This document shows, piece by piece, positions 36,841 through 40,247 of a DNA stretch of 64,000 nt (its first letter is position 1; each line of letters begins with the position of its first letter). The notes beneath the pieces are model-generated. The model was given only the letters and a program-made list of their open reading frames with translations, ran no database searches and was not told the DNA's origin. The translations under genes were made by a program, and so were the position numbers. This stretch comes from Microlunatus kandeliicorticis (GTDB lineage: Bacteria; Actinomycetota; Actinomycetes; Propionibacteriales; Propionibacteriaceae). The DNA lies in the NCBI RefSeq assembly GCF_014137855.1, contig NZ_JACGWT010000002.1, positions 186,001 to 250,000 on the forward strand, given 5' to 3'.

Positions 36841-37290
36841 TCAGTCGGGGATGGCCGCGACCTTGGCCGCGGAAGCCGACTTCTCGTCGAAGGTGTAGCC
36901 CAGCCACTCCTTGGCCAGCCGGCGGGCCAGCTCGATGCCGACCACCCGCTGGCCGAAGCACAGCACCTGGGCGTTGTTGGAGAGCACCGAACGCTCGACC
37001 GAGAAGCTGTCGTGCGCGGTCACCGCGCGGATCCCGTCGACCTTGTTGGCGCTGATCGCCACCCCGAGCCCGGTGCCGCAGACCAGCAGCGCGCGGTCGG
37101 CCTTGCCGTCCTTGATCAGGTTCCCGGCCTCGATGGCGACCTCCGGGTAGGCGGTGTTCTCGCCCGCGGTCACGCCGACGTCGACCACCTCGGCCACCCG
37201 CGGGTCGGCCTCCAGGTCGGCCTTGAGGATCTCCTTGTAGTCCAGGCCGGCGTCGTCGCTGCCGACCACGATCCGCAGCTTGTCGCTCAT
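36841..37290 (-). CDS. RpiB/LacAB-family isomerase, probable D-erythrulose-4-phosphate isomerase
   Basis: A 149-residue aldose-ketose isomerase. The catalytic Cys71 lies in ALLVCGTGLGVAISANKV and the phosphate/anion loop in VGSDDAGLDYKE. The usual RpiB start has GCDHAG with a His; here it is GSDDAG, a change also found in the sugar-specific relatives of the family. Last gene of an operon after a dehydrogenase and a DAK-type kinase. In Mycobacterium smegmatis such a trio (EltD, DerK, DerI) turns erythritol into erythrose-4-phosphate, so this is probably DerI-like; pentose phosphate isomerase is the alternative. GAGGAGGAG precedes ATG 37290. Confidence 0.8.
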   Translation of the reverse strand: MSDKLRIVVGSDDAGLDYKEILKADLEADPRVAEVVDVGVTAGENTAYPEVAIEAGNLIKDGKADRALLVCGTGLGVAISANKVDGIRAVTAHDSFSVERSVLSNNAQVLCFGQRVVGIELARRLAKEWLGYTFDEKSASAAKVAAIPD

Positions 37291-37346
37291 CGTCGTCTCC
37301 TCCTCGCGTTCGGTTGTCCCGTCCGGTGCAACACCGCCGGACGGTC

Positions 37347-39098
37347 TCAGCTTCCGGTTCGGCCGCTGCCGGTTCCGAGGGCCTCGCCGGCCACCCGGAC
37401 GCAGATCGCGAACGAGGTCGCCCCCGCGTCGGGCGTCCCCACGCTGCGGTCGGCCAGCGGGCGGGCCCGGCCCACCTTCGGCCGCAGCTCGGCGGTGTCC
37501 TCGGCCGCCCCGCGGGCCACCTCGACCGCCTCGGCCCAGGCCGTGCGCCAGTCGGCGCCGCCGGACACCTTCTCCTCGAGGGTGCGGACGAACGGTTGCC
37601 AGGCGTCGAGCATCGTCTTGTCCCCCGGCTCGGCCCCGCCCAGGCTGGTCAGTGCCTCGTAGCCGGCGGTCAGCGCCTCGACGACGTCGCGGTCGCCCGG
37701 GGTGCCCTCGTTGCCGAGCCGGTGACCGATCGCGGTCAGCGCCGCGCCCCAGAGCACACCGGAGGTGCCACCGGCCTGCGCGGCCCACTCGTCGCCGGCG
37801 GCCTTGAGCACACCGCGGGCGCCGCGACCCTCCTCGACCGCCGCCGCCGCGGCCTTCCGGGCCGCTGCCGAGCCCTTGACCATCCCGCGGCCGTGGTCGC
37901 CGTCGCCGGCCACCGCGTCGATCCGGCCGAGCTCCTCCTCGTGCTCGGCCATCGCGTCGGCGATCGCCGCCACCGCGGCGGAGATCCGCTCGCCGGCCCG
38001 CCAGCTGTCGTCGTCGCCGTCCTCGTCCTCCTCGGGAGCCTCGGCCGCGGCGGCCGCCTCCTCCGGGGTCCGCCGCTCGCCGCCGGCGTCACCGGGACCG
38101 CCGACGACCCCGCGCCGGAAGGTCGGCGTGTCCGCCGCGGCCAGCCACCACCGCTCGAGGTCGTCGTCGAGCCACATCACGGTGAGCGAGCAGCCGGCCA
38201 TGTCGAGGCTGGTGACCAGCTCGCCGACCTCGGGCCGCACCAGCGTGCAGCCGGCGTCGCGGAGCCGCGCGGCCGCGCGGCCCCAGACCACGAACAGCTC
38301 CTCGTACTTGGTGGTGCCGAGCCCGTTGAGGATCACCGCGACGCGGTCGCCGGCCCCGTCGGGCTTCTCCGCCAGCACGCCGTCGACCAGCAGCTCGGCC
38401 AGCTCGGCGGCGCTCGGCATCGCGTGCTCACTCACCCCGGGCTCGCCGTGGATGCCGAGCCCGAGACCCATCTTCCCTTCGGGAACGGTGAACAGCGGCT
38501 CGTCGGCGCCGGGCATGGTGCAGCCGTCGAAGGCGACACCGAGGCTGCGGGTCATGTCGTTGGCCCGCTGCCCGGCAGCGAGCACCGCGTCGAGGTCGGC
38601 CCCCTCCTCGGCGGCCGCGCTGGCCACCTTGAAGACGGTGAAGTCGCCGGCGATCCCGCGCCGCTTGGTGATCTCCTCGGCGGGCGCGCTGGCGATGTCG
38701 TCGGTCACCGCCAGGTAGCGCGCGGCGACGCCCTCGGCCTCGAGCTGCTGGACGGCGAGCCCGAAGTTCATCACGTCACCTGCGTAGTTGCCGGTGGTGA
38801 GCAGGACGCCGGCCCCACCGTCCGCGGCCCGGGCGACCGAGGCGGCGTCGGCCGCGGACGGCGAGGTGAAGATGTTGCCGATCACCGCGCCGTCGGCGAA
38901 GCCGGGGCCGACGACCCCGCAGAACGCCGGGTAGTGCCCGGAGCCGCCGCCGACCACCACGGCCACCTTGTTCGCGGGGGTCCTGGTCGCCCGCACCACG
39001 CCGCCGGGCACCGCCACTACGTAGTCGGCGTTCGCGTCGGCGAACCCGGCCACCATGTCCTCGGTGAACCGGGCCGGGTCGTTGTACAGCCTGGTCAT
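37347..39098 (-). CDS. DAK-family kinase (DhaK-DhaL fusion), probable erythrulose kinase
   Basis: A 583-residue ATP-dependent kinase of the dihydroxyacetone kinase family. The DhaK half (1-330) binds the keto-sugar covalently through His217 in LGLGIHGEPG; VVVGGGSGHYPAF and TTGNYAGDVMNF are family strips. After an acidic linker (residues ~340-375, EEAAAAAEAPEEDEDGDDD) comes the DhaL half with the ATP-binding Asp motif DAVAGDGDHGRGMVKG and AQAGGTSGVLWG. The operon partners (polyol dehydrogenase, RpiB-type isomerase) point to phosphorylation of erythrulose rather than dihydroxyacetone. AGGAGGG precedes ATG 39098. Confidence 0.88.
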   Translation of the reverse strand: MTRLYNDPARFTEDMVAGFADANADYVVAVPGGVVRATRTPANKVAVVVGGGSGHYPAFCGVVGPGFADGAVIGNIFTSPSAADAASVARAADGGAGVLLTTGNYAGDVMNFGLAVQQLEAEGVAARYLAVTDDIASAPAEEITKRRGIAGDFTVFKVASAAAEEGADLDAVLAAGQRANDMTRSLGVAFDGCTMPGADEPLFTVPEGKMGLGLGIHGEPGVSEHAMPSAAELAELLVDGVLAEKPDGAGDRVAVILNGLGTTKYEELFVVWGRAAARLRDAGCTLVRPEVGELVTSLDMAGCSLTVMWLDDDLERWWLAAADTPTFRRGVVGGPGDAGGERRTPEEAAAAAEAPEEDEDGDDDSWRAGERISAAVAAIADAMAEHEEELGRIDAVAGDGDHGRGMVKGSAAARKAAAAAVEEGRGARGVLKAAGDEWAAQAGGTSGVLWGAALTAIGHRLGNEGTPGDRDVVEALTAGYEALTSLGGAEPGDKTMLDAWQPFVRTLEEKVSGGADWRTAWAEAVEVARGAAEDTAELRPKVGRARPLADRSVGTPDAGATSFAICVRVAGEALGTGSGRTGS

Positions 39099-39164
39099 CG
39101 CAGCCCTCCTGTCGTTCCCAGCCGTCCGGTCCTCGCGCGTCCGCTCTCCGGCGCCGCGACGTGA

Positions 39165-40247
39165 TCAGGGGATCAGCGAGACCTTGATCGACTCGGCGCC
39201 GCTGCCGACCAGGTCGAGGCCCTTCTGGAACTCGGCCAGCGGGAGCTGGTGGGTGACGATCTCGTCCATCGGCAGCGCTCCGGAGGCGAGCAGCTGGAGC
39301 GCGGCCGGCCAGCAGTGCGGACCGAGGTGGGCGCCCAGCACGTCGAGCTCCTTGTCGTCGGAGATGATCGACCAGTCGACGGTGACGTCACTGCCGAACA
39401 CCCCGTACTCGACGTAGGTGCCGAGCTTGCGGAGCAGGTTGAGCCCCTGCGGGACGGCCGCCGGGTGCCCGGTGCCCTCGAGGTAGACGTCGGCACCGTA
39501 GCCGTCGGTCAGCTCCTTGACCTTGGCCACCGCGTCCTCCTCGGCGATGTTGATCGCCAGGTCGGCGCCGCACTTGCGGGCCAGCTCGAGCTTGCGCGGG
39601 ATCGAGTCGAGCGCGATCACCATCCGCGGGTTCTTGCTCTTCGCCCCGGCGATCATCCCGAGCCCGATCGGGCCGCAGCCGGCGACCACCACCACGTCGT
39701 CGAAGGTCAGCTTGGCGCGCTCGACCGCGTGCATCGCGCACGACAGGGGCTCGACGAACGCGGCGTGCGCCGGCGGCAGCTCCTTCGGCACCTGGTGGAC
39801 CAGCGCGTCGGCGCTGTAGACCATGTACTCGGCCATCGCGCCGGGGGTGCGGCGCTTGAAGCCGTAGAGGTCGTGCGGCCCGCACATCCAGTACTCGCCG
39901 CGCAGGCAGTAACGGCACTTCCAGCACGGGACGATCTGCTCGCTGGTGACCCGGTCGCCGACCGCGACGCCCCACCGCTCGGCGGCGGCGTCGTCGAGCT
40001 GGACGACGGTGCCGACGAACTCGTGGCCGGGGATGACCTCGGTCTCCGCCCAGGCCGGCCGGTTGTCGTCGCCCCAGAACTTGGCGGCGCCGTGGTAGCA
40101 CTTCAGGTCGCTGGCGCAGATGCCCACCGCGTCGACCTTGACCAGCGCCTCACCCGGTCCGGGTGTCGGTACGTCGACCTCCGCCAGCTGGTAGTTCTCC
40201 GGGCCGTGGCAGATCACGGCCTGCATCTTCTGCGGGATCTCGACCAT
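39165..40247 (-). CDS. Zinc-dependent polyol dehydrogenase, probable erythritol/L-threitol dehydrogenase
   Basis: A 360-residue medium-chain dehydrogenase. Catalytic zinc ligands: Cys44 in VGICASDLK, His75/Glu76 in PGHEF. Structural zinc: Cys108, 111, 114 and 122 in CWKCRYCLRGEYWMC. The NAD fold is VVVAGCGPIGLGMIAGAKSK, with IALDSIPRKLELA following (Asp selects NAD). The length and the FWGDDNRPAWAETEVIPGHE insertion near the active site resemble mycobacterial EltD. First gene of the operon with the kinase and isomerase, so it probably oxidises a tetritol to erythrulose. GAAGGAG stands 8 nt before ATG 40247. Sorbitol-type polyols remain possible. Confidence 0.82.
   Translation of the reverse strand: MVEIPQKMQAVICHGPENYQLAEVDVPTPGPGEALVKVDAVGICASDLKCYHGAAKFWGDDNRPAWAETEVIPGHEFVGTVVQLDDAAAERWGVAVGDRVTSEQIVPCWKCRYCLRGEYWMCGPHDLYGFKRRTPGAMAEYMVYSADALVHQVPKELPPAHAAFVEPLSCAMHAVERAKLTFDDVVVVAGCGPIGLGMIAGAKSKNPRMVIALDSIPRKLELARKCGADLAINIAEEDAVAKVKELTDGYGADVYLEGTGHPAAVPQGLNLLRKLGTYVEYGVFGSDVTVDWSIISDDKELDVLGAHLGPHCWPAALQLLASGALPMDEIVTHQLPLAEFQKGLDLVGSGAESIKVSLIP

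What the first reader, a model, noticed from the sequence alone, without database searches (positions are those of the whole stretch)
36841..40247. Three-gene operon matching erythritol/threitol catabolism
A zinc dehydrogenase resembling EltD, a DAK-type kinase and an RpiB-type isomerase with GSDDAG in place of GCDHAG lie in this order on one strand. Together they would convert erythritol to erythrulose, erythrulose-4-phosphate and erythrose-4-phosphate, as EltD-DerK-DerI do in Mycobacterium smegmatis. All three genes are contiguous here, with no transporter or regulator in the operon.
Basis: partly seen in the sequence, partly recalled or inferred. Interest (0 to 1): 0.6.

Follow-up and report, generated by a model that had tools for sequence, protein, structure and literature searches.

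The report
Pared-down erythritol degradation operon
Three neighbouring genes in an actinobacterium look like the known erythritol-breakdown pathway of mycobacteria, here without the importer, the switch protein and its DNA site that accompany the pathway in many relatives, so it is mostly a familiar pathway in pared-down form.

Summary
In detail: EltD-like zinc dehydrogenase (40247-39165), DAK1-DAK2 kinase (39098-37347) and RpiB-type isomerase with GSDDAG (37290-36841), contiguous on the minus strand. The reading as tetritol catabolism is well supported by sequence, not by assay. EltD relatives (62-85% identical) have a DAK kinase nearby in 54 of 65 well-flanked loci. The kinase falls on the side of the tree linked to EltD without a TPI-type isomerase (DerK-like). 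The isomerase lacks the ring-opening and the phosphate-binding histidine, as do all 78 cluster rows read, while 26 of 29 rows read from other searches keep both; it is 71% identical to a Coccidioides enzyme whose authors suspected shorter substrates. The genome (Microlunatus, by its relatives) has one DAK kinase, no LerI-like second TPI, and a separate canonical RpiB. Many relatives carry a transporter (up to 50 of 80) and a SorC-family regulator (58 of 80), with an operator-like site upstream of eltD. None of the regulator, that site, or close homologues of the two ABC types was found here; the three genes remain under purifying selection. A bare triad is not unique: 10 of 80 loci. New member of a known kind; TIGR02133 probably misnames the isomerase.

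The parts
39165..40247 (-). eltD-like zinc polyol dehydrogenase, 360 aa; predicted NAD-dependent erythritol (and L-threitol) dehydrogenase
   Evidence: C44, H75-E76, E166 (catalytic-zinc type) and Cys 108/111/114/122 (structural-zinc type) invariant in 6 aligned family members; D214 suggests NAD (roles recalled); 62-85% identical relatives in clusters with DAK and RpiB
37347..39098 (-). DAK1-DAK2 fused kinase, 583 aa; predicted D-erythrulose kinase (DerK-like)
   Evidence: NF011049 DAK family 757 bits; EltD-linked side of the kinase tree; only Dak1 gene found in the genome; motifs GSGH, GIHGEPG and DGDHGRG present
36841..37290 (-). RpiB-family isomerase, 149 aa, GSDDAG; [quoted passage not shown]
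   Evidence: Asp at residue 13 and Ser at residue 104 where canonical copies have His, Lys at 143, catalytic Cys71 kept; 71% identical to PDB 3qd5
36041..36805 (-). type I methionyl aminopeptidase-like gene, 35 bp downstream, possibly co-transcribed; syntenic neighbour in Propionibacteriaceae rather than pathway gene
   Evidence: TIGR00500, 239 vs cut-off 171 bits; also near eltD in L024, L025, L026, L035, L042, L052, L081
42543..43304 (+). SDR dehydrogenase, 253 aa; neighbour of SorC and eltD in relatives; possible second tetritol or ketose dehydrogenase
   Evidence: 61-68% identical to SDRs beside SorC; GolD/DthD family model 216 bits, below its cut-off of 286
40541..41173 (-). secreted-looking protein of unknown family between eltD and the aminotransferase; not part of the pathway
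   Evidence: no Pfam or NCBIfam hit at 0.001
41335..42417 (-). branched-chain amino acid aminotransferase between SDR and eltD; a 65% identical gene is directly upstream of eltD in Microlunatus endophyticus
   Evidence: 368 vs cut-off 307 bits; L052

Best explanation
It is an EltD-DerK-DerI tetritol pathway. EltD oxidises erythritol to D-erythrulose with NAD; the DAK kinase phosphorylates it to D-erythrulose-4-phosphate; [quoted passage not shown] Shown here: gene order, family and clade membership, active-site changes, co-occurrence, copy numbers in the genome, absence of close homologues of the relatives' ABC permeases and regulator and of the operator-like site. Inferred: the substrates, the D series, co-transcription, and that the missing parts were lost rather than never gained.
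For: Co-occurrence: of 65 EltD loci with at least 8 kb on both sides, 54 have DAK, 49 cluster-type RpiB, 48 both, 49 SorC; of all 80 loci kept 59, 57, 52, 58. Same order with five ABC genes inside in Microlunatus parietis and M. speluncae and in 15 of 16 loci taken from 33 EltD-bearing genomes of the family of G308 (L115 ends before RpiB, which one search lists just beyond it; one locus, L129, has EltD without the rest). Kinase clade. Isomerase: 78 of 78 cluster rows lack both His, 26 of 29 other rows have both, and one of the other 3 proved to be a cluster copy. Coccidioides paper: Asp17, Ser109 and Lys148 stand in place of phosphate and ring-opening residues and the authors suspect shorter-chain substrates (PMC3212906, passages). 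EltD with LerK turns erythritol into D-erythrulose-4-phosphate, which DerI turns into erythrose-4-phosphate, in engineered E. coli (PMC10733421, passages). No LerI-like second TPI in this genome, as expected for a D-only route. dN/dS 0.27, 0.32 and 0.38 for the three genes against G007 (NG86).
Against: No assay. No sequence named as M. smegmatis was in hand, so DerK and LerK are named by genomic linkage. In the passages of PMC10733421 LerK acts on the D series too, so the kinase clade may not fix stereochemistry, and the deepest split of the kinase tree has only SH-aLRT 80. No tetritol importer was recognised in the genome: best match to the CUT1-type permease 38%, to the ribose-type permease 36%, and the only MIP channel is over the cut-off of aquaporin Z; MFS transporters were not searched in the genome. 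10 of 65 EltD loci have neither DAK nor cluster-type RpiB. The RpiB tree does not resolve the window's place.
Confidence: 0.82

Rival explanations
1. Ordinary glycerone kinase plus ribose-5-phosphate isomerase beside a sorbitol-type dehydrogenase, by chance or for C3/C5 metabolism.
For: TIGR02133 names the isomerase ribose-5-phosphate isomerase above cut-off; Dak1/Dak2 domains are those of glycerone kinases. It is the only DAK found in the genome.
Against: A second RpiB with SDHAG, His at the ring-opening position and Arg for phosphate is on another contig. The linkage recurs across Actinomycetota. The glycerone kinase model TIGR02361 is missed by 228 bits.
Confidence: 0.06
2. The operon serves threitol rather than erythritol: D-threitol oxidised by the neighbouring SDR, or L-threitol by EltD, with the kinase acting on either erythrulose.
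For: EltD acts on L-threitol too (PMC10733421 passages). The SDR at 42543-43304 is a recurrent neighbour and its second-best NCBIfam model is GolD/DthD, though below cut-off.
Against: An L-threitol route needs LerI, and no LerI-like second TPI was found. The SDR's best solved relative is called L-xylulose reductase, and the gene is 2.3 kb away and divergent.
Confidence: 0.2
3. A remnant in decay: transporter, regulator and operator already lost, the enzymes next.
For: Propionibacteriaceae loci form a possible series: complete (L025, L026), triad without transporter and regulator (window, L024), EltD and RpiB with no kinase between (L036, L081), EltD beside the aminopeptidase gene only (L035). 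By identity (70% or more) this kinase type is in 4 of 20 genus genomes, the window's included.
Against: All three ORFs intact with ribosome sites; dN/dS 0.27 (EltD), 0.32 (DAK), 0.38 (RpiB) against G007, beside 0.32 for the neighbouring aminopeptidase gene.
Confidence: 0.12

Closest known systems
EltD-DerK-DerI tetritol pathway of Mycolicibacterium smegmatis (Huang 2015, recalled, not held; steps seen in passages of PMC12780249 and PMC10733421)
   Same: Same three enzyme families in the same order; in the family of G308 the order is SorC (often with SDR), EltD, five ABC genes, DAK, RpiB, which fits an operon msmeg_3265-3273 mentioned in PMC11303327 (passages) and locus numbers that I recall
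   Different: No ABC genes between eltD and the kinase, no SorC regulator, no operator-like site; an aminotransferase and a secreted-looking protein sit between SDR and eltD
Brucella/rhizobial EryI (RpiB-type isomerase) pathway
   Same: Same last step; NF051858 DerI (rhizobial) matches at 142 bits; PDB 5ifz (43% identical, from Brucella as I recall) also lacks both His
   Different: That pathway phosphorylates erythritol first (EryA, EryB, EryC, EryH; PMC5992420 passages); the window protein is below the NF051858 cut-off of 240
Coccidioides immitis RpiB (PDB 3qd5, 3sdw)
   Same: 71% identity and the same residues at the three altered positions
   Different: Fungal; the substrate is left open in the passages seen
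Yarrowia lipolytica erythritol cluster (EYD1, EYK1, EYI1)
   Same: Dehydrogenase, DAK-type kinase and RpiB-type isomerase (PMC5992420 passages)
   Different: Also has a TpiA2-type gene; eukaryotic cluster with its own transcription factor EUF1

Membership tests
EltD-DerK-DerI tetritol pathway | Zn dehydrogenase of the EltD family linked to DAK kinase and RpiB-type isomerase | tested here: met
EltD-DerK-DerI tetritol pathway | NAD-dependent oxidation of erythritol/L-threitol; kinase on D-erythrulose; isomerase on D-erythrulose-4-phosphate | not testable with these tools
   needs assays
EltD-DerK-DerI tetritol pathway | Phylogenetic grouping with the characterised M. smegmatis proteins | tested here: inconclusive
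   no locus is named M. smegmatis; the kinase groups with those of the G308-family clusters and Nocardia (SH-aLRT 97), which stand in for it
EltD-DerK-DerI tetritol pathway | SorC-type regulator with operator-like site, and importer as in many relatives (accompanying, not needed for the chemistry) | tested here: not met
   other transporter types, such as MFS, were not searched in the genome
TIGR02133 ribose-5-phosphate isomerase (RPI_actino) | Score over the curated cut-off | tested here: met
   189 vs 168.2 bits
TIGR02133 ribose-5-phosphate isomerase (RPI_actino) | Ring-opening His and phosphate-binding His/Arg of ribose-5-phosphate isomerase B | tested here: not met
   residues 13 D, 104 S, 143 K; roles from PMC3212906 and PMC4783025 passages
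NF051858 DerI, rhizobial type | Score over the curated cut-off | tested here: not met
   142.5 vs 240 bits; works like it, not a member of that model
TIGR02361 glycerone kinase | Score over the curated cut-off | tested here: not met
   346.8 vs 574.95 bits
LerK / L-erythrulose route | TPI-like LerI in cluster or genome | tested here: not met
   one TPI match at 1e-10 in the genome, 37% identical to the cluster type, at G000:C3
L-threonine 3-dehydrogenase | Score over the curated cut-off (TIGR00692) | tested here: not met
   219 vs 458 bits; best solved relatives are annotated threonine dehydrogenases, 190 bits
Sorbitol dehydrogenase | Closer to solved sorbitol dehydrogenases than to other Zn-ADHs | tested here: not met
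   133 bits, after threonine dehydrogenases and a ketose reductase; no tree with sorbitol dehydrogenases was built

The most novel reading that the evidence does not exclude
The triad has been cut loose from dedicated import and from tetritol sensing and now works as an unregulated salvage route for erythritol or D-erythrulose that arises inside the cell or enters by a non-dedicated route, returning it as erythrose-4-phosphate.
Probability: 0.17. Interest if true: 0.5.

Novelty: new member of a known kind. Interest (0 to 1): 0.3.

Why it matters
It gives a residue signature (Ser for the ring-opening His, a non-His residue at the phosphate position, Lys for the C-terminal Arg) that appears to separate tetrulose-phosphate isomerases from ribose-5-phosphate isomerases B, two functions that one curated model now names alike. 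It offers a chemical reason: a tetrulose 4-phosphate cannot close a furanose ring, so ring opening is not needed. It suggests an answer to the substrate question left open in the Coccidioides RpiB paper. The lack of regulator and operator around an intact triad raises a testable physiological question.

Tried and rejected
Glycerone kinase/ribose-5-phosphate isomerase reading: rejected on residues, linkage and the second RpiB. L-erythrulose route: disfavoured by the lack of a LerI-like TPI. Aquaglyceroporin uptake: the only MIP match is aquaporin Z. Two other ABC loci of the genome (L161, L162) do not look like tetritol clusters by their neighbours (judged by eye, not searched). The RpiB tree was too short to place the window. 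A plasmid search listed DAK relatives at up to 62% identity and was not followed. The promoter scan found no sigma-70-like site. A first gene-calling script failed and its successor missed genes, so architecture was taken from tblastn. Structure prediction was not used.

Limits of the counts: the 80 EltD loci are the best 80 of 325 found by a scan that needs CWKCRYC or YWMC[GQ]PH, so the set leans to close relatives. Reference proteins for the architecture came from genus loci, with identity thresholds of my choice. Cluster RpiB rows were chosen at 40% identity or more to such references, which favours the type; no RpiB-family hit under 40% turned up in the loci at 1e-12, though a canonical copy might be too distant to reach that. 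The 78 rows hold duplicates of one genome (such as L034 and L025, L037 and L026, L128 and L045). The 29 other rows are the best match of each of 30 of 31 genomes (L136 could not be read), 30 of 70 matches. The kinase tree left out three duplicate loci (L034, L037, L045) and kinases covered under 80%. The operator was defined on the SorC-linked set in which it was counted, and only loci with EltD over 75% identical were used, without L034, L037, L045 and L128. Loss of transporter and regulator, against never having had them, rests on parsimony alone.
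Full report
What is there. On the minus strand lie a 360-aa zinc dehydrogenase (40247-39165), a 583-aa DAK1-DAK2 kinase (39098-37347) and a 149-aa RpiB-family isomerase (37290-36841), with gaps of 66 and 56 bp and ribosome-site-like sequence before each ATG. A methionyl-aminopeptidase-like gene follows after 35 bp on the same strand; the scan found no terminator-like site between. The genome is 4.3 Mb in 9 contigs. Two genomes of its genus match Microlunatus parietis and M. speluncae in contig length and locus, so I take the genus to be Microlunatus, family Propionibacteriaceae.

Families. The kinase is over the cut-off of NF011049 (DAK family) but far below glycerone kinase TIGR02361; the dehydrogenase is below the cut-off of each of the 21 NCBIfam models that it matches; the isomerase is over the cut-off of TIGR02133 'ribose-5-phosphate isomerase' and below that of NF051858 'D-erythrulose-4-phosphate isomerase'. 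The genome has one Dak1 match and two RpiB-family matches: this one and a copy with SDHAG on another contig.

Linkage. A scan of named genomes with the EltD alignment kept 80 of 325 loci. Of the 65 with at least 8 kb on both sides, 54 have a DAK kinase, 49 a cluster-type RpiB, 48 both, 49 a SorC-family regulator, 12 a CUT1-type ABC transporter, 16 a ribose-type ABC transporter, 11 a TPI-like gene; 10 have neither kinase nor isomerase. In 18 of the 80 a stretch of 1.2-1.8 kb lies between EltD and the kinase; the one copy tested is an MFS transporter (L079), and that of L068 looks alike by eye. Counting these as transporters, up to 50 of 80 have one. In 10 of 80 (L050, L077, L100, L102, L105, L106, L107, L109, L110, L113) EltD and the kinase are adjacent and neither ABC type is seen in the stretch; 9 of these 10 keep SorC. 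So a bare triad is not peculiar to the window. In Rothia (L105) it is followed by two ORFs that look like a mannitol dehydrogenase and a xylulokinase (by eye). EltD is sporadic: 12 of 296 genomes of the class, own included, at 1e-110, and 33 of 401 of the family of G308 at 1e-100. In 15 of 16 loci that I took from those 33 the order is EltD, five ABC genes, DAK, RpiB with SorC divergent upstream, 12 of the 16 with the SDR as well; L115 ends before RpiB, and L129 has EltD without the rest.

M. smegmatis. I recall that EltD, DerK and DerI are MSMEG_3265, 3271 and 3272; the gene count of the order above fits, and PMC11303327 (passages) speaks of an operon msmeg_3265 to msmeg_3273 of carbohydrate metabolism. 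The SDR of L118 scores 440 bits with PDB 4egf, 'L-xylulose reductase', which I recall to be from M. smegmatis. No call gave a sequence named M. smegmatis, so the match to the characterised proteins is indirect.

Kinase clades. In a tree of 81 kinases from these loci, one side (24 rows) holds 16 of the 19 rows with a TPI-like gene nearby; the other side (57 rows) holds the window and the remaining 3, all from loci with two kinases (L024 twice, L049). The split itself has only SH-aLRT 80 under the quick method, and the long-branched second kinase of L024 is placed with little certainty. The window kinase lies with those of G007, M. parietis and M. speluncae (98), inside a clade with the kinases of the G308 family and Nocardia (97). 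L049 has one kinase on each side. I read the sides as LerK-like and DerK-like, which is linkage, not assay. By identity of 70% or more the window type occurs in 4 of 20 genus genomes. The genome shows one TPI match only, 37% identical to the cluster type. So a route through D-erythrulose is the only complete one seen.

Isomerase residues. In RpiB, E. coli His10 contacts phosphate, the His99 mutant loses most of its turnover, the matching His is held to serve ring opening, and Cys66 is the base (PMC4783025, passages). At the matching window residues stand Asp13, Ser104 and Cys71, with Lys143 in place of the C-terminal Arg (numbering of E. coli recalled). All 78 rows from loci around EltD or DAK have Ser at 104, Cys at 71, Lys at 143 and no His at 13 (D 60, S 8, E 6, N 3, A 1). 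Of 30 loci brought in by a family search of 31 genomes, 29 could be read: 26 have His, His and Arg; L149 and L153 have Asn, Ser and Lys and lie far from EltD, and L154 proved to be the cluster copy of G664. The closest solved structure, 3qd5 of Coccidioides immitis, is 71% identical with the same residues; its authors noted Asp17, Ser109 and Lys148, saw phosphate rather than ribose-5-phosphate bound and no melting shift with ribose-5-phosphate, and suspected shorter-chain substrates (PMC3212906, passages). PDB 5ifz (43%) also lacks both His. A tetrulose 4-phosphate cannot form a furanose ring, which would explain why the ring-opening His is dispensable; this link is my inference. The listings (no paper; 20 of 248 listed; 15 of 27 listed) showed no paper on it by title and abstract, within an open-access library only.

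Missing parts. M. parietis and M. speluncae have EltD, five ABC genes, DAK, RpiB, the aminopeptidase gene nearby and SorC divergent. The window genome has no close homologue of that permease (best 38%), of the ribose-type permease (best 36%) or of the SorC regulator (none at 1e-15); MFS genes were not searched. G007 has the triad without transporter too, with the SDR 250 bp upstream of EltD, where other loci have SorC. Upstream of eltD in SorC-linked loci a site with the consensus TGAACATttGTTCTGGACAtATGTgCac occurs: its 8-base seed in 25 of 30 loci, and at least 10 of 11 core positions in 26 of 30. Of 13 loci without SorC none reaches 10, though L028 and L033 keep the seed (9 of 11); the window's best is 9 of 11 inside the end of the neighbouring gene, and the whole window has no match to the core with up to one mismatch (0.38 expected by chance). 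So regulator, operator-like site and the two ABC types are absent together. Since order and neighbour are shared with complete relatives, loss is likelier than never having had them. The genes are under purifying selection against G007 (dN/dS 0.27, 0.32, 0.38). MAG loci L036 and L081 have EltD and RpiB with no kinase between, and L035 EltD beside the aminopeptidase gene, which looks like a series of reductions.

Verdict. The pathway is known; what is added is the residue signature, the likely misnaming by TIGR02133, and the absence of regulator, operator and cognate ABC transporter. Searches for erythritol in Microlunatus gave one and four papers, none on the subject by its listing.

Noticed in passing
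window 42543-43304 (+): SDR gene 61-68% identical to the SDR beside SorC and eltD in relatives; probably a member of the same tetritol neighbourhood, substrate unknown.
   Followed up: partly
L036, L081, L035: Propionibacteriaceae MAG loci with EltD and RpiB but no kinase between them, or EltD beside the aminopeptidase gene only: a possible reduction series.
   Followed up: partly
L149, L153: RpiB-family copies in two genomes of the G308 family with Asn at residue 13, Ser at 104 and Lys at 143, far from EltD.
   Followed up: no
window 36841-37290 and PDB 3qd5: 71% identity between an actinobacterial and a fungal isomerase suggests gene transfer between the groups.
   Followed up: no
window 40541-41173 (-): Secreted-looking 210-aa protein without Pfam or NCBIfam hit, between eltD and the aminotransferase.
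   Followed up: no
upstream of eltD in 25 of 30 SorC-linked loci, such as L025 and L118: Conserved operator-like site TGAACAT-GTTCTGGACA-ATGT between SorC and eltD; L028 and L033 keep its seed without a SorC in the stretch.
   Followed up: yes
L029, L030, L031: DAK-RpiB-TPI-DeoR clusters without EltD in the fetched stretch in three genus genomes; substrate unclear.
   Followed up: no
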